In this document: positions 2,115 to 64,000 of the stretch, piece after piece | Layout: every line of letters starts with the position of its first letter | Numbering within the stretch: position 1 is the stretch's first letter | Assembly: GCF_000968535.2 (NCBI RefSeq) | Contig: NC_016112.1 | Coordinates: 558,001 to 622,000 of the forward strand | DNA length: 64,000 nt | Direction: 5' to 3' | Origin: Methylotuvimicrobium alcaliphilum 20Z | GTDB lineage: Bacteria; Pseudomonadota; Gammaproteobacteria; Methylococcales; Methylomonadaceae | Translations under genes and position numbers: made by a program | Notes under the pieces: model-generated | What the model saw: the letters and a program-made list of their open reading frames with translations, nothing else | The model's database searches: none | What the model was told of the DNA's origin: nothing

Positions 2115-2350
2115 TATACCCGTCGTAGATCAAAATTCGGCGCCTGGGTGTCCGCTAAAGGCCCAGCATCTAAATTATCCAAGATAGTTAACCATAGCCA
2201 ATGGGCTAGGGAATTTAGGTGCTGGGTGAACCCATCCTTGGGGGCTTGACGGCAGCTCAAACGCCAAGGATGGCGTGAATGCAGATTTTGCAGGAGCAAA
2301 AATCTGCCCTATTGCCGACATCCTCGCTAGCCACACCCCATACCTTCATA
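2115..2350. repeat. TATACC-end repeat (left end) joined to a GTGGGG-type repeat
   Basis: The 509-bp gap between der and the sensor kinase contains a left inverted end of the TATACC repeat family (starting at 2115, with the GTAGATCAAAATTCGGC block), an internal AGCAYCTAAATT...AATTTAGGTGCT palindromic module (about 2162-2226), and then the module with ATGGCGTGAATGCAGATTT that elsewhere belongs to a second repeat family (compare 45355-45530 and 49804-49952). The region 2280-2400, including the stretch after the repeat, resembles 45420-45540. No right-hand TATACC end is present, so this is a composite or decayed copy. Nothing else is recognised between 2351 and 2522. Confidence 0.7.
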
Positions 2351-10044: not shown

Positions 10045-10272
10045 TATACCTATCGCAGATCAAAATTCGGCGCCGGGGGGGGCGTCAAAGGGCGCAGTGA
10101 ACCCAGCACCTAAATTATCCAAGATAGTTAATCATAGCCAATGGACTATGGAATTTAGGTGCTGGGTGAATACATCCCTGTAGGCTCTATGCCAGCTCCA
10201 TGCTGGCAAAGTCTTGCCGCACACCCCGACGCCTCCTCAGGCACTGCCGAAATTTGAAGTGCGAAAGGTATA
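10045..10272. repeat. Complete TATACC-end repeat
   Basis: A 228-bp element between inverted ends at 10045 and 10272. It carries the CAGCACCTAAATT...AATTTAGGTGCTG palindromic module (about 10102-10166) and the GCCAGCTCCATGCTGGC module (about 10192-10207). A decayed right-type end lies just left of it at about 10013-10040. The element occupies most of the gap between the DUF411 gene and the convergent small membrane protein, leaving only the terminator at 10275-10327. Confidence 0.8.
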
Positions 10273-15603: not shown

Positions 15604-16024
15604 TATGCTCTTCATTGATTAAATTCGGTGCCGGGGGCTGCCAAAGGACGCCGTGAACCCAGCACCTAAATTCCATAGGTCTTTGGCAATGATTCAAAAT
15701 CATGGCTTATTTAGGTGCTGGATGAATTATTCAAGATAGTTAACCATAGTCATTGAGCTATGGAATTTAGGTGTTGGGTGAATGCGTCTATGTAGGTCCC
15801 TCGCTTAGCGTTCACTGCCATTAAGTTAAGGGCTTTTTCGTTCGCCCTGAGCTTGTCGAAGGGTGAATGAAAAAGTCCGACAATCGATAAGTTAAGCCGT
15901 CCATGGTTCGACACGCTCACCACGAACGGCTTAACTTAATGGCAGTGTCTCCTAGCGTTAAGTGAGGGATCGAACAACCCGGCTCCTTTTTGAGCGCTGC
16001 CGAAATTTGAAGTGAAAAAAGTTA
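15604..16024. repeat. Long composite TATACC-family repeat with nested palindromes
   Basis: A 420-bp composite. The outer ends are decayed (left around 15604-15632; right ...GCCGAAATTTGAAGTGAAAAAAG ending about 16024). Inside are two successive CACCTAAATT...AATTTAGGTG modules (about 15660-15775) and then a nested palindrome of 135 bp: arms CACTGCCATTAAGTTAAG (15813-15830) and its exact complement (15930-15947), enclosing two REP motifs (TTCGCCCTGAGCTTGTCGAA and GGTTCGACACGCTCACCACG). An outer arm pair CCCTCGCTTAGCG / CGTTAAGTGAGGG surrounds it. No coding content is supported in 15245-16054. Confidence 0.75.
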
Positions 16025-41305: not shown

Positions 41306-41611
41306 TATATATCCATCATCGTAGATCAAAATTCGGCGCCGGGGTGCCCGTCAAAGGCCCAGCACCTAAATTCCATAGGTATTTGGCAATGATTCAAAAT
41401 CATGGCTTATTTAGGTGCTGGGTGAATACATCCATGTAGGCTTGAGCGGCCTCCCAATGAACTCGGTAAAGCTTAAAGTATTTCCTGGCTAAAATTCATT
41501 TAAATTAATCATACAAGGCTCTATGCCGGTCCCTCACCTAGCGTTAGGTGAGGGACCGAGCACCCTGGCGCCTCCTGAGGATCCGCCGAAATTTGAAGTG
41601 CGAAAGGTATA
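41306..41611. repeat. Complete TATACC-end repeat with foreign insert
   Basis: A roughly 305-bp copy from about 41306 (TATATCCATCATCGTAGATC) to 41611 (...GAAGTGCGAAAGGTATA). It contains the CAGCACCTAAATTCC...TTTAGGTGCTG module and the palindrome CCTCACCTAGCGTTAGGTGAGG. Between them 41440-41515 is AT-rich sequence not present in other copies. It separates rhlE from the convergent oadB. Confidence 0.78.
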
Positions 41612-50071: not shown

Positions 50072-50334
50072 GTAGATCAAAATTCGGCGCCGGGGGCGTC
50101 AAAGGACGCCGTGAACCCAGCACCTAAATTATCCAATACCATTAATCATGGTAATGGGCTATGGAATTAGGTGCTGGGTGAATACGTCCATATAGGCTCT
50201 ATGCTAGCTCCATGCTGGCAAACCCTTTGTGAGCGCCATGGATGGCGTGAATGTCGATTTTGCAGGAGCGAAAATCGACCGGACACCCCGGCGGCGCCTC
50301 AGGCACTGCCGAAATTTGAAGTGCGAAAGGTATA
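50072..50334. repeat. Complete TATACC-end repeat
   Basis: A 263-bp copy from TATACCCATTGTAGATCAAA at 50072 to ...GAAGTGCGAAAGGTATA ending at 50334. It has the CAGCACCTAAATTATCCAA...AATTAGGTGCTG module, the TAGCTCCATGCTGGC module and the CGCCATGGATGGCG / CGATTTTGCAGGAGCGAAAATCG module, so it contains all of the common interior blocks. Confidence 0.85.
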
Positions 50335-59096: not shown

Positions 59097-60290
59097 TTGC
59101 AAGATCAATTGAAGTATCTTTCCAGAGGAGCCGAGGAAATTCTGCTTGAATCTGAATTGAAGAAAAAACTGGAGGAAGGGCGTCCGCTCAGAATCAAGGC
59201 GGGTTTTGATCCAACCGCTCCTGATTTGCATCTTGGGCATACCGTGCTGATCAATAAATTAAGACAGTTTCAAGACTGCGGACATGAAGTTTTGTTCTTG
59301 ATTGGCGATTTTACAGGCATGATCGGGGATCCGACCGGAAAGAACGTAACGCGCAAACCTCTGACGCGTGATGAGGTCATTGAAAATGCCAAGACTTATG
59401 AGGAGCAGGTTTTCAAGATACTTGATCCTTCCAAGACTTTGGTCTTATTCAATTCGAGTTGGATGAATGCAATGACCTCGGCTGAATTGATTCAATTGGC
59501 CGCAAAGCATACCGTGGCAAGAATGCTCGAAAGAGATGATTTCAGTAAGCGCTATAAAGGAGGGCAGCCGATCGCGATACATGAATTTTTATATCCATTA
59601 ATACAGGGATATGATTCGGTTGCGATGAAGGCCGATGTCGAATTGGGCGGTACCGATCAAAAATTCAATCTGTTGGTTGGAAGGCAGTTGCAGGAAATAT
59701 ATGGGCAAAAACCTCAAGTCGTCATGACTATGCCGATCTTGGAAGGCTTGGATGGTGTTCAAAAAATGTCCAAATCACTCAATAACTATATAGGTGTCGC
59801 GGATGCGCCGGATGAGATGTTTGGGAAAATTATGTCCATTTCCGATGAGCTGATGTGGCGCTATTTCGAGTTATTGAGCTTCAGGCCAATCGAAGAAATC
59901 AGTCGTTGGCGGGGGCAATGTCAGGAAGGTGCGAATCCGAAAGACTGTAAAGTTAGCTTGGCCCAAGAAATCATTGAAAGATTCCATAGTTCATCAGCGG
60001 CGCAAAAAGCCTTGGAAAATTTCGAAGCTAGATTTCAAAAAGGACAGATGCCGGAAGAAATGGACGAATTGACTCTTGCTTCGATCGAGCAAGGATATCC
60101 GATTGCTAATCTATTAAAGGATGCGGGCTTGACTGGGAGTACATCGGAATCTTTGCGCATGATTAAACAGGGCGCAGTTAAGATAGATGGTGAAAAGGTG
60201 TCGGATAATAAATTGCATCTTGCAAAAGGGTCTGAACATGTTTATCAGGTGGGTAAAAGGAAGTTTGCGAGAGTAAAAATAGCTATCTAA
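59097..60290 (+). CDS. tyrS: Tyrosyl-tRNA synthetase (TTG start)
   Basis: TyrRS charges tRNA-Tyr. The 397-residue protein has the class I signatures DLHLGHTV (HIGH-like, about residues 42-49) and KMSKS (about 228-232), a catalytic barrel with [11 protein letters not shown] and a C-terminal S4 domain (about 330-397). The start codon is TTG, chosen because a perfect AAAGGAGG lies 5 nt upstream and the protein aligns from there. Its rare start could limit expression. The rRNA operon promoter follows within 70 nt, a typical neighbour. Confidence 0.96.
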
Positions 60291-60357
60291 ATAAAAGAGT
60301 TAGAGTTTATTGAAGGCAGGAGGGTGTCTTTAATTTGTAAAAGAAGAAAATAAATTC

Positions 60358-60385
60358 TTGACGAGCTGAGATAGCTCTGTATAAT
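60358..60385 (+). promoter_or_regulatory. rrn promoter P1
   Basis: TTGACG (60358-60363) and TATAAT (60380-60385) with a 16-nt spacer, followed by GC-rich AGCCGTCTTTCCCGCC as in growth-rate-controlled promoters. Confidence 0.85.
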
Positions 60386-60443
60386 AGCCGTCTTTCCCGC
60401 CGCGAAACAGCGGAACGACGGGAAAAGAGATTGAAAATAAAGT

Positions 60444-60471
60444 TTGACATTGAGTTTCGCTTCTGTATAAT
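60444..60471 (+). promoter_or_regulatory. rrn promoter P2
   Basis: TTGACA (60444-60449) and TATAAT (60466-60471), both perfect, with a 16-nt spacer. It sits 86 bp downstream of P1, tandem as in other gammaproteobacteria. Confidence 0.9.
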
Positions 60472-60502
60472 AGGCGGGCTCAACGGGAGAGAAAGTCTTC
60501 CA

Positions 60503-60514
60503 GCTCTTTAACAA
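60503..60514 (+). promoter_or_regulatory. rrn boxA antitermination site (leader)
   Basis: GCTCTTTAACA is the boxA sequence bound by the NusB-S10 antitermination complex. A second copy, GCTCTTTAACAA, occurs at about 62568-62579 in the spacer before 23S. Confidence 0.85.
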
Positions 60515-60668
60515 GCAGATCAAAATAATTTGTGTGGGTGCTTGTGGCGAATAGCTTAGCGGTTAAAACTATTCGGCGCAAGAACAACACGTTAATTCAA
60601 AGCGATTACGTTTAATTCTTAGTCGAGCCAAGATTGGTGACTCATCTTATTGAGTCACAAACCATATT

Positions 60669-62203
<1,535 letters not shown>

Positions 62204-62270
62204 CAAAGACAGCAAGCGTTCGTCATAAGTACCCACAACAAATTATTTTGATCGAAGACGTCACGAGCCT

Positions 62271-62347
<77 letters not shown>

Positions 62348-62418
62348 ACGCGGCGCAAGCCTGGAAGCGGAAGGACCACCCGTCAAACTAGCAGTGTTTA
62401 GTTTGCACGAACCCCAAA

Positions 62419-62494
62419 GGGGCCATAGCTCAGCTGGGAGAGCGCCTGCCTTGCACGCAGGAGGTCGGGAGTTCGATCCTCCCTGGCTCCACCA
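62419..62494 (+). tRNA. tRNA-Ala (TGC)
   Basis: A 76-nt cloverleaf beginning GGGGCCATAGCTCAG and ending TGGCTCCACCA with encoded CCA; anticodon TGC is in CTGCCTTGCACGCAG. The spacer pair Ile-Ala is standard. Its 3' CCA is the start of a large palindrome at 62490-62546. Confidence 0.96.
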
Positions 62495-62546
62495 ATGCTA
62501 TACCGTTTGAATGGCGAAAGCCCTCACAGACGGTATAGCATTGGTG
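62490..62546 (+). other. Palindrome overlapping the tRNA-Ala CCA end
   Basis: CACCAATGCTATACCGT (62490-62506) and its exact complement (62530-62546) form a 17-bp stem enclosing 23 nt. The left arm includes the last five bases of tRNA-Ala (CACCA). It may act as a processing signal in the spacer RNA. The remaining spacer to 62855 shows the second boxA and otherwise nothing recognised. Confidence 0.75.
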
Positions 62547-63385
62547 ACGGAAACAACGTCACGAATAGCTCTTTAACAATTTGGAAATCTGTACACTGTA
62601 ACTTCAACGTTTAAAGCGATTTAAACCAAGAAGATACATAAAACAAGTTCACCGAAGCAGACGGTAAAGCAAAGCTTGTTACTGTCCGCGCCGCAAGGCG
62701 AAGACAGCGGCAAAGCCAAGACCAACCGAAAGCGACGTGAATGAGTTCTCAAGCAGAAAGCGAAAATGTCAGCTGACAGATAACGCCACAGACCTGAACC
62801 GAAACCACGCTACCGAAAGGGAGTGCGAGAGCGGTCAGACTGATTGGGGTTATATGGTCAAGTGAATAAGCGCATACGGTGGATGCCTAGGCGATAAGAG
62901 GCGACGAAGGACGTAGTAGCATGCGATAAGCCGCGGGGAGTTTGCAAACTAACTTTGATCCGCGGATTTCCGAATGGGGCAACCCAGTCAGGACAACCTG
63001 ATTATCCTTAAGTGAATACATAGCTTAAGGAGGCGAACCCGGGGAACTGAAACATCTAAGTACCCGGAGGAAAAGAAATCAACCGAGATTCCCTTAGTAG
63101 CGGCGAGCGAACGGGGACCAGCCCTTAAGTCCAGCCCCAGTTAGTGGAATGCCCTGGAAAGAGCAGCCATAGATGGTGATAGCCCAGTACATGAAAACTG
63201 GAGCTGGATGAAAACGAGTAGGACGGGGCACGTGAAACCTTGTCTGAACATGGGGGGACCATCCTCCAAGGCTAAATACTCCTTATCGACCGATAGTGAA
63301 CCAGTACCGTGAGGGAAAGGCGAAAAGAACCGAGGAGATCGGAGTGAAATAGAACCTGAAACCGTATGCGTACAAGCAGTAGGAG

Positions 63386-63682
63386 TCCCGCCCCTAAATT
63401 ACTTTAGGAAAAAAATGCATTACTTTTATGTCTTACAAGCAATTGAAGATAAAGAAAAGTTTTACTTTGGCTGTACGAGTAACCTGAAAGAGCGAATCAG
63501 CTCGCATAATGCAGGTAAAAATATAGCAACTAGAAGCAATCAGTGGCGAGTGGTTTATTACGAAGCGTCTTTAACATTAAGTGGAGCGAGACAGCGAGAA
63601 TATCGTATCAAGCATCACGGCAGTGCAAAGCGTAAATTAATGGACCGAATCAAACCCACCTTAGAGTAATTTAGGGGCGGGA
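63386..63682 (+). mobile_element. Intervening sequence in 23S helix 25 encoding a GIY-YIG protein
   Basis: A 297-nt insertion replaces the tip of helix 25. Its two ends, TCCCGCCCCTAAATTACTTT (63386-63405, extended by AGG to 63408) and the arm at 63660-63682, pair as 23 consecutive base pairs in RNA, with two G-U wobbles, stacking onto the rRNA helix. This is the design of classical bacterial 23S intervening sequences that are cut out by RNase III without religation. Group I and II intron core motifs are not seen. Inside the loop lies the gene at 63415-63669, whose stop codon falls in the right arm of the stem. Confidence 0.85.
63415..63669 (+). CDS. GIY-YIG nuclease family protein encoded within 23S rRNA
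   Basis: The 84-residue protein is one GIY-YIG domain. Visible catalytic positions are Y5 (in HYFYVL, the GIY site), Y17-F-G19 (the YIG site), R27 (LKERISSHN), H31 and E62 (RQREYRIK). It also keeps the T-x(n)-W-RVVYYE segment of YhbQ/URI-like small proteins. The start ATG is 7 nt after the left arm of the stem, with an A-rich spacer and AGGAAAA as a weak ribosome binding site; the last codons lie in the right arm. Unlike the four-helix-bundle protein usually found in such intervening sequences, this looks like an active endonuclease and could promote spread of the insertion among rRNA genes. That role is inference. Confidence 0.85.
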   Translation: MHYFYVLQAIEDKEKFYFGCTSNLKERISSHNAGKNIATRSNQWRVVYYEASLTLSGARQREYRIKHHGSAKRKLMDRIKPTLE

Positions 63683-64000
63683 TGACTGCGTACCTTTTGT
63701 ATAATGGGTCAGCGACTTAATCTCAGTGGCAAGCTTAACCGAATAGGGGAGGCGTAGCGAAAGCGAGTCTGAATAGGGCGTCATAGTCGCTGGGATTAGA
63801 CCCGAAACCGGGCGATCTATCCATGACCAGGTTGAAGGTTGGGTAATACCAACTGGAGGACCGAACCGGGATCCGTTGAAAAGGATTCGGATGAGTTGTG
63901 GATCGGAGTGAAAGGCTAATCAAGCCCGGAGATAGCTGGTTCTCCTCGAAAGCTATTTAGGTAGCGCCTCGTGTATCACTGTTGGGGGTAGAGCACTGTT

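What the first reader, a model, noticed from the sequence alone, without database searches (positions are those of the whole stretch)
63386..63682. GIY-YIG nuclease gene inside a helix-25 intervening sequence of 23S rRNA
Seen: a 297-nt insertion with a 23-bp terminal stem replaces the helix 25 loop and encodes an 84-residue GIY-YIG protein with Y5, Y17-x-G19, R27, H31 and E62 in place. Known: 23S intervening sequences at helix 25 or 45 are normally removed by RNase III without ligation and, when coding, usually encode a four-helix-bundle protein; homing endonucleases in rRNA normally sit in group I introns and are of LAGLIDADG or other types. Here a nuclease of the homing-type fold sits in an element with no intron core. 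Inference: the nuclease may cut intervening-sequence-free 23S genes at helix 25, making the element a homing intervening sequence, or it may have been co-opted to process the RNA.
Basis: partly seen in the sequence, partly recalled or inferred. Interest (0 to 1): 0.9.

Follow-up and report, generated by a model that had tools for sequence, protein, structure and literature searches.

The report
Ribosomal insert from a GIY-YIG mobile element
A tiny gene for a DNA-cutting enzyme sits inside the large ribosomal RNA of a methane-eating bacterium, and its relatives elsewhere carry the hallmarks of a jumping gene, which may explain where such ribosomal insertions come from.

Summary
A 297-nt insert (63386-63682) with a perfect terminal stem replaces the helix-25 tip of 23S rRNA and encodes an intact 84-aa GIY-YIG protein. 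All 3 rrl copies carry it. Sister species have an empty helix 25, or relatives of the element at helix 68.

It is not a lone oddity. Its nearest relatives lie at the same site in Gammaproteobacteria, Planctomycetota and candidate-phylum bacteria. More distant kin sit in other 23S/16S hairpins, in the P3 hairpin of RNase P RNA, and outside RNA genes. There they have terminal inverted repeats (60/200 ORFs against 7/1464 control ORFs) and 4-bp target-site duplications (12/29 and, in a second set, 12/43; about 1 expected). Among labelled rows the repeat type tracks the protein clade. Palindromes with similar ends occur hundreds of times in the host genome, often in the loop of a REP hairpin that also exists empty.

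Best reading: this intervening sequence descends from a transposon-like family whose only gene is the GIY-YIG nuclease, and it lodges at hairpin tips. RNA-gene copies show no duplication (0/20, 0/7). Nuclease action, the insertion step and RNase III excision are inferred, not tested.

The parts
62856..64000 (+). 23S rRNA gene (5' part, cut by window end), host of the insert
   Evidence: Rfam RF02541
63386..63682 (+). 297-nt element (intervening sequence) in place of the helix-25 stem-loop tip
   Evidence: alignment with the empty helix 25 of G004 and of one operon of G002
63386..63401 (+). 5' terminal inverted repeat TCCCGCCCCTAAATTA (base of the IVS stem, which extends to about 63408)
63415..63669 (+). 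ORF, 84-aa GIY-YIG nuclease, intact
63667..63682 (+). 3' terminal inverted repeat TAATTTAGGGGCGGGA (holds the stop codon)
2164..2224 (.). dispersed palindrome with similar ends (CAGCATCTAAATT..AATTTAGGTGCTG)
10104..10164 (.). dispersed palindrome with similar ends
15660..15776 (.). dispersed composite palindrome with similar ends
41360..41420 (.). dispersed palindrome with similar ends
50118..50176 (.). dispersed palindrome with similar ends

Best explanation
The insert is an rRNA-resident member, by descent, of an undescribed family of small mobile DNA elements. Each consists of a hairpin-forming pair of terminal inverted repeats (here the CCC..CAC type, 'A') and one gene, a GIY-YIG nuclease of about 80-95 aa without an added DNA-binding domain. 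SHOWN: repeats around the gene; catalytic residues kept and low dN/dS in the informative pairs; 4-bp target duplications in copies outside RNA genes; several copies in most of the small genomes searched; repeat type tracking protein clade among labelled rows; empty, GIY-YIG-bearing and GIY-YIG-less alleles in one genus; one H25/H68 lineage across three phyla. INFERRED: the nuclease, whose nearest solved relatives are UPF0213 and the branched-DNA nuclease SLX1, recognises the element's hairpin ends and/or a target hairpin, makes a staggered cut, and so inserts or copies the element; in rRNA only insertions at helix tips that rebuild the helix survive; the RNA stem is then cut out by RNase III without ligation, as in other IVSs. 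Allelic (homing-like) conversion among rrn operons and after horizontal transfer probably keeps it at helix 25.
For: Occupancy and polymorphism: H25 filled with the ORF in 3 of 3 rrl of G000 and of G003; empty in 3 of 3 of G004; in G002 1 of 3 empty and 2 of 3 with an insert without a GIY-YIG match; H68 filled in 3 of 3 of G002 and G003, empty in 3 of 3 of G000 and G004. The 15 first-listed loci of the genome-contig scan (E 3e-53 to 1e-17; several from the same genomes) are all in 23S, 14 at H25 and 1 at H68. A clade of 11 H25 copies plus one H68 copy (bootstrap 99, SH-aLRT 87) spans Gammaproteobacteria, Planctomycetota and Moraniibacteriota. Repeat score >= 20 in 60 of 200 GIY-YIG ORFs against 7 of 1464 other ORFs. 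TSD >= 4 outside RNA genes: 12 of 29, shuffled mean 1.2, 0 of 5000 as high; in a second set of 87 loci, 85 scored and 43 with a usable boundary, 12 of 43, shuffled mean 1.06, 0 of 5000. Types A/B/C need 2 changes, the minimum, over 83 labelled rows. dN/dS 0.04 (own against Bathymodiolus symbiont), 0.09 (two Moraniibacteriota), 0.10 (two H68 copies) and 0.18 (own against a Moraniibacteriota copy). Of 12 genomes of 1.2 Mb or less, 10 have 3-9 GIY-YIG matches at E <= 1e-6, cousins without repeats included. Fold: pLDDT 96.3; UPF0213 and SLX1 best.
Against: None of the 20 rRNA/rnpB copies and none of the 7 has a target duplication, so the transposition hallmark is absent for the window copy itself; 17 of 29 and 24 of 36 copies outside labelled RNA genes lack one of 4 bp too. 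140 of 200 GIY-YIG ORFs show no strong repeats, and once the 120 unlabelled rows are counted the label groups need 6 (A), 9 (B) and 18 (C) changes. No protein, cleavage or movement was tested. GIY-YIG enzymes are not known (recalled) to join DNA ends. The host-genome palindromes have similar, not identical, ends to the window element; in REP loops those of recognised type lie nearly all in one orientation (28 against 1, 3 untyped), which suits copying of the composite REP rather than separate insertions; and Y1 transposases are present. The changes among own and G003 copies are all non-synonymous (2 and 4).
Confidence: 0.65

Rival explanations
1. Homing only: the nuclease cuts element-free 23S genes at helix 25 and the element is copied by repair from a filled allele; the terminal repeats matter only as an RNA stem for RNase III.
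For: Same site in distant phyla with protein lineages that largely follow the site; no target duplication in 20 of 20 RNA-gene copies; empty and filled alleles in one genome.
Against: Repeats and 4-bp duplications in copies outside RNA genes; in the genus the same ends occur at H25 (G002) and H68 (G003), and the H68 protein L020 falls in the H25 clade; the protein is a bare nuclease domain, while classical homing GIY-YIG enzymes carry a C-terminal DNA-binding part (recalled).
Confidence: 0.16
2. The palindromes are moved by another enzyme (for instance RAYT-type Y1 transposases that move the REPs they sit in) and the GIY-YIG gene hitchhikes.
For: G000 has 5 PF01797 hits; 24 of 43 sampled palindromes have REP flanks on both sides, and the inserts in REP loops lie nearly all in one orientation.
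Against: Repeat type tracks the GIY-YIG clade among labelled rows; the repeats lie within about 130 nt of the ORF, leaving little room for another gene; in three genomes with only 2-4 exact CGTC-REP copies, two copies flank a GIY-YIG gene.
Confidence: 0.1
3. Ordinary RNase III-processed IVS with a passenger ORF; hairpin tips are simply the only tolerated places.
For: Helix 25 is one of the commonest IVS sites (PMC4990558, passages); strong stem.
Against: Low dN/dS in the informative pairs, catalytic residues kept, repeats and duplications outside rRNA.
Confidence: 0.07
4. The protein has been co-opted to process the rRNA or the IVS RNA.
For: The gene lies in the transcript that it would process; stem pairing is conserved.
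Against: Kin without rRNA context keep the same domain and repeats; an insert without a GIY-YIG match exists at the same helix (G002).
Confidence: 0.02

Closest known systems
23S rRNA intervening sequences of helices 9, 25 and 45
   Same: Site (helix 25), long terminal stem, sporadic presence between operons and species, no intron core found
   Different: Codes for a GIY-YIG nuclease, not the S23p protein; belongs to a family that also lies outside rRNA with target duplications. PMC4990558 (passages) calls the function and origin of IVSs unclear, with transposition as one old hypothesis
GIY-YIG-coding rRNA insertions of CPR bacteria (PMC11270868, abstract and passages)
   Same: GIY-YIG ORFs in rRNA insertions that match neither intron class
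   Different: In the passages read they are sparse and judged outside homing; here one H25 lineage spans CPR, Planctomycetota and Gammaproteobacteria, with repeats, target duplications and copies outside rRNA
GIY-YIG homing endonucleases (I-TevI type)
   Same: Catalytic domain; mobile genetic context
   Different: No intron core found, no room for an added DNA-binding domain; I-TevI only a weak match
UPF0213 proteins and SLX1
   Same: Nearest solved sequences and folds; SLX1 entries are titled as processing branched DNA
   Different: Not known to sit in inverted-repeat elements (recalled)
REP/REPIN elements and RAYT transposases; CGTC REPs (PMC3733652, abstract and passages)
   Same: Dispersed palindromes in high copy number; an enzyme gene flanked by its palindrome
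   Different: RAYTs are HUH/tyrosine enzymes; here the associated gene is GIY-YIG. The paper finds no dedicated transposase for CGTC REPs

Membership tests
23S rRNA intervening sequence (IVS) | Insertion at a hairpin tip of 23S with complementary ends | tested here: met
23S rRNA intervening sequence (IVS) | Excised by RNase III without ligation, fragmented 23S | not testable with these tools
   needs RNA
23S rRNA intervening sequence (IVS) | When coding, usually the S23p four-helix-bundle protein | tested here: not met
   only GIY-YIG passes a Pfam cut-off
Group I/II intron with homing endonuclease | Self-splicing intron core | tested here: not met
   no intron family at gathering score in window 60000-64000
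Inverted-repeat DNA transposon | Terminal inverted repeats around the gene | tested here: met
   window copy; wider family 60/200 against 7/1464
Inverted-repeat DNA transposon | Target-site duplication in family copies outside RNA genes | tested here: met
   4 bp or more in 12/29 and 12/43 (12/36 outside labelled RNA genes), about 1 expected
Inverted-repeat DNA transposon | Target-site duplication at the window copy and other RNA-gene copies | tested here: not met
   0 of 20; 0 of 7
Inverted-repeat DNA transposon | Own enzyme moves it | not testable with these tools
   needs an assay
GIY-YIG nuclease superfamily | Fold and catalytic residues | tested here: met
I-TevI-type homing endonuclease | C-terminal DNA-binding domain (recalled) | tested here: not met
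   84 aa; Pfam domain covers residues 1-71
REP/RAYT system | Y1/HUH transposase linked to the palindrome | tested here: inconclusive
   5 Y1_Tnp hits in G000; their flanks were not examined

The most novel reading that the evidence does not exclude
Small GIY-YIG nucleases are the transposases of a new superfamily of hairpin-ended elements, each clade with its own palindrome: type A (rRNA intervening sequences and RNase P P3 inserts among them, CCC..CAC ends), type B (CCCGT.. ends) and type C, the CGTC-tagged REP repeats that were said to lack a dedicated transposase. They work by cutting at hairpin structures, so hairpin tips of RNA genes and REPs are their natural landing places.
Probability: 0.48. 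Interest if true: 0.96.

Novelty: categorically new. Interest (0 to 1): 0.91.

Why it matters
The origin of rRNA intervening sequences was still called unclear in 2016 (PMC4990558, passages), with transposition as an untested idea. A family with terminal repeats, target duplications and a single nuclease gene, found both outside and inside rRNA, makes that idea directly testable. It would add an enzyme class to the known ways DNA elements move, and it offers a candidate mobiliser for CGTC REP repeats, for which PMC3733652 found no dedicated transposase. It also shows RNase P RNA occupied at the same kind of hairpin tip.

Tried and rejected
Group I/II intron core: none reached threshold in Rfam. 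Unique oddity of one genome: rejected. My first near/far REP count (about 11-fold, 79 loci) was confounded by coding sequence and included rRNA loci; masked and without them (71 loci) it is 2.44 against 0.40 per kb, 32 near copies against 18.7 expected, maximum of 5000 simulations 29. Co-occurrence of C-type proteins and exact CGTC REPs over 369 genomes: 34 with both, 32 REP only, 39 protein only, 264 neither, Fisher odds ratio 7.2, p 7e-11, not corrected for relatedness; against the link, in G240 and G243 the single exact copy does not lie by the gene. Target motif: both empty sites of the genus are cUUCGg loops, but E. coli H25 and H68 are not, so no UUCG rule is claimed. TIR labels for the tree were set by my reading of the ends; a regular-expression typing of 86 loci agreed for 60, disagreed for one labelled locus (L086), could not type 12 labelled ones, and 13 were loci that I had left unlabelled. 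L038 fell out of the tree (stop in frame). Five loci at contig edges were dropped. Searches used only labelled A/B loci with repeat score >= 14 and a CC[CA] boundary (49); others, for example the H68 copies L009, L022, L037 and L053, are not in those counts. In one search two edge loci, 35 with weak repeats and 7 without the boundary were dropped, and L289, a repeat of L069, was left out; L330/L336 come from one genome and are near copies. L068 and L094 did not reach Rfam's RNase P threshold; they rest on the flanks. Papers: ten searches; 'GIY-YIG transposase' gave 0 papers and none of the titles shown was about GIY-YIG genes as transposases, but only the first 10-20 of up to 294 hits were shown. 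I opened five papers (PMC11270868, PMC3733652, PMC12455944, PMC4990558, PMC1564403) and read abstracts or passages only. Preprints and most subscription papers are not held.

Full report
OBSERVATION. The window ends inside a 23S rRNA gene (62856 onward). At 63386-63682 a 297-nt insert stands where the same genus otherwise has a 16-nt helix-25 tip. Its ends pair perfectly, and it encodes an 84-aa protein (63415-63669) that matches Pfam GIY-YIG at E 2e-11. No intron family reached Rfam's threshold in 60000-64000.

SAME GENOME AND GENUS. The genome (G000, 4.8 Mb) has three rrl genes, and all three carry the insert with an intact frame, 98-100% identical in protein. Of 101 genomes searched, G000 included, 8 have a match at E <= 0.001. 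G003, which is Methylomicrobium sp. wino1 by its contig coordinates, has the H25 element in 3 of 3 rrl and a second GIY-YIG element at E. coli 1863^1874 (tip of helix 68) in 3 of 3; one of these three is a different, 496-nt allele. G002 has the H68 element in 3 of 3, and at H25 one empty site and two inserts without a GIY-YIG match. G004 is empty at both sites in 3 of 3. G020 (the snail endosymbiont record of L035, by coordinates) has frameshifted H68 copies, an H25 ORF that ends after 74 codons and a 99-nt H25 insert without an ORF of 40 aa. So filled, decayed and empty states occur within one family.

SELECTION AND STRUCTURE. dN/dS is 0.04 against the Bathymodiolus symbiont (dS 2.4, saturated), 0.09 between two Moraniibacteriota, 0.10 between two H68 copies and 0.18 between the window copy and a Moraniibacteriota copy; two more pairs had no usable dS, and the 2 and 4 differences among own copies and against G003 are all non-synonymous. 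Nine distinct H25 elements keep 144 of 144 stem pairs with both-side changes at 12 of 16 positions, against a mean of 112 and a maximum of 133 when arms are shuffled among elements; the arms were picked by me as pairing arms. AlphaFold gives pLDDT 96.3. The best PDB matches are UPF0213 (1zg2) and SLX1 by sequence profile and by fold (ranks 1-12, which also hold the SLX1-like plant protein HIGLE, Foldseek E 2.4e-3 to 4.1e-2, probability 1.0); I-TevI is weak in both.

SAME SITE ACROSS PHYLA. The single genome-contig scan found 181 relatives and kept 79 loci. The 15 first-listed all lie in 23S: 14 at H25 and one at H68. They come from Methylomicrobium sp. wino1 (3 loci), a mussel symbiont (2) and a snail symbiont, Halomonas ventosae, another gammaproteobacterial bin, two planctomycete bins at H25 and one at H68, three Moraniibacteriota bins and a Dehalococcoidia bin (the last with a stop in frame). 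A tree of 58 proteins puts 11 H25 copies and one H68 copy in one clade (99/87), crossing three phyla by record title, while another H68 lineage is a separate clade (100/98) and one further H25 copy (L308, from the phylum of G475) stands apart. The protein is short and 21 of 55 inner branches are open.

OTHER RNA GENES. Weaker relatives sit in 23S near H63 (L059), near positions 600 (L065) and 275 (L073), in 16S h17 (L064) and h44 (L055, L074), and in RNase P RNA: Rfam confirms RF00010 at L042 and L060, and L068 and L094, which Rfam does not report, show the same junctions. In the later set L290, L296, L302 and L344 have the same rnpB junction. Helix names are recalled; positions are from the alignments.

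OUTSIDE RNA GENES: REPEATS AND DUPLICATIONS. Scoring the best pairing between the two flanks of each ORF, 60 of 200 GIY-YIG ORFs reach 20 points against 7 of 1464 other ORFs in the same loci (the 200 are top hits, rRNA copies included, and hold related copies). Three kinds of ends appear: A (CCC..CAC, as in the window), B (CCCGT..), C (REP palindromes of CGTC type). On a tree of 203 proteins the labels of 83 rows need two changes, the minimum; 120 rows without a label lie among them, and with these counted A, B and C need 6, 9 and 18 changes. Just outside the A and B ends there are exact duplications, mostly of 4 bp: 12 of 29 with 4 bp or more (one of the 29, L094, is in rnpB; L079 and L088 are near copies), shuffled mean 1.2, 0 of 5000 as high; none of 20 copies in rRNA or rnpB has one. 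A second set from 379 genomes of the phylum of G475 (197 with a match at E <= 1e-15), 87 loci with 85 scored, 31 of them with a repeat score of 20 or more and 43 with a usable boundary, gave 12 of 43, shuffled mean 1.06, maximum 6, 0 of 5000: 0 of 7 in RNA genes recognised by their flanks and 12 of 36 elsewhere. Of 12 genomes of 1.2 Mb or less, 10 hold 3-9 matches (not all with repeats).

DISPERSED PALINDROMES IN THE HOST. The end 13-mer CAGCACCTAAATT (up to one mismatch) occurs 533 times in G000 against 4 for the reversed control, 534/7 in G002, 392/5 in G003, 479/3 in G005, 81/5 in G004, 17/4 in G046, 4/8 in G020, 2/0 in G063 and 14/4 in G066. The same ends are those of the H25 inserts of G002 and of the 496-nt H68 insert of G003, which has the ORF; the window element's own ends differ by one indel and one base. 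In 400 kb of G000, chosen for having the motif, 43 hairpins were found; 24 of 43 have flanks of a GTAG-tagged REP hairpin on both sides by one rule, several others being nested or variant. Searching from the REP side gives 32 filled and 25 empty loops, the filled ones reading GTGAA[CCC..GGG]TGAATACG against GTGAATACG, which is a TGAA duplication. The inserts of recognised type lie 28 to 1 in one orientation, and RAYT-like genes are present, so the spread of these composites may be largely the REP's doing.

TYPE C. Of 71 gammaproteobacterial loci, CGTC-type motifs are denser in the non-coding flanks of the gene (2.44 against 0.40 per kb; 32 near copies against 18.7 expected). In G166 and G355 the only two exact copies in the genome flank the GIY-YIG gene, and in G450 two of four do; in G240 and G243 the single exact copy lies elsewhere. 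Over 369 genomes the two co-occur with odds ratio 7.2. [quoted passage not shown] This is a lead, not proof.

MECHANISM. I take the window element to be an rRNA-resident member, by descent, of a transposon-like family with a GIY-YIG nuclease as its only gene. That it inserts by hairpin recognition is inferred from the positions, from SLX1-like similarity and from the REP-loop target. That RNA-gene copies lack duplications may mean that only insertions which rebuilt the helix survived, or that they arise by conversion; the data do not decide. Excision by RNase III is expected from other IVSs (PMC4990558, passages), not shown.

NOVELTY. GIY-YIG ORFs in rRNA insertions of CPR bacteria are known (PMC11270868, abstract and passages). 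A link to repeats, target duplications, RNase P RNA and dispersed palindromes was in none of the passages that I read, and the ten searches named under Tried and rejected showed no title on GIY-YIG genes as transposases among the hits listed.

Noticed in passing
L060 and L094 (rnpB genes): A second palindrome with type-A ends lies further along the same RNase P RNA gene (by eye).
   Followed up: no
L035 (snail endosymbiont) 16S rRNA: 16S has extra inserts of about 57 and 87 nt at positions 81^82 and 178^179 of the window's 16S.
   Followed up: no
G046:C1:1775845-1777476: A partial extra 23S gene (Rfam model positions 1302-2912) besides two complete ones.
   Followed up: no
window 2139-2252, 10079-10192 and other places of G000: A GTAG-tagged REP family (GGACG-CCGTGAATA-CGTCC-ATGTAGGC) is abundant; its loop is often occupied by the palindromes described here.
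   Followed up: partly
L106-L108, L124, L130, L151, L187, L234, L235, L249, L253: Small GIY-YIG genes flanked on both sides by REP-like palindromes of GTCATTCC or GTCATTGCGAG type, in Gammaproteobacteria, in small genomes and in a planctomycete.
   Followed up: partly
L069, L085, L303: Elements or palindromes with these ends lie directly before tRNA genes (L069 and L085 by Rfam; L303 by eye).
   Followed up: no
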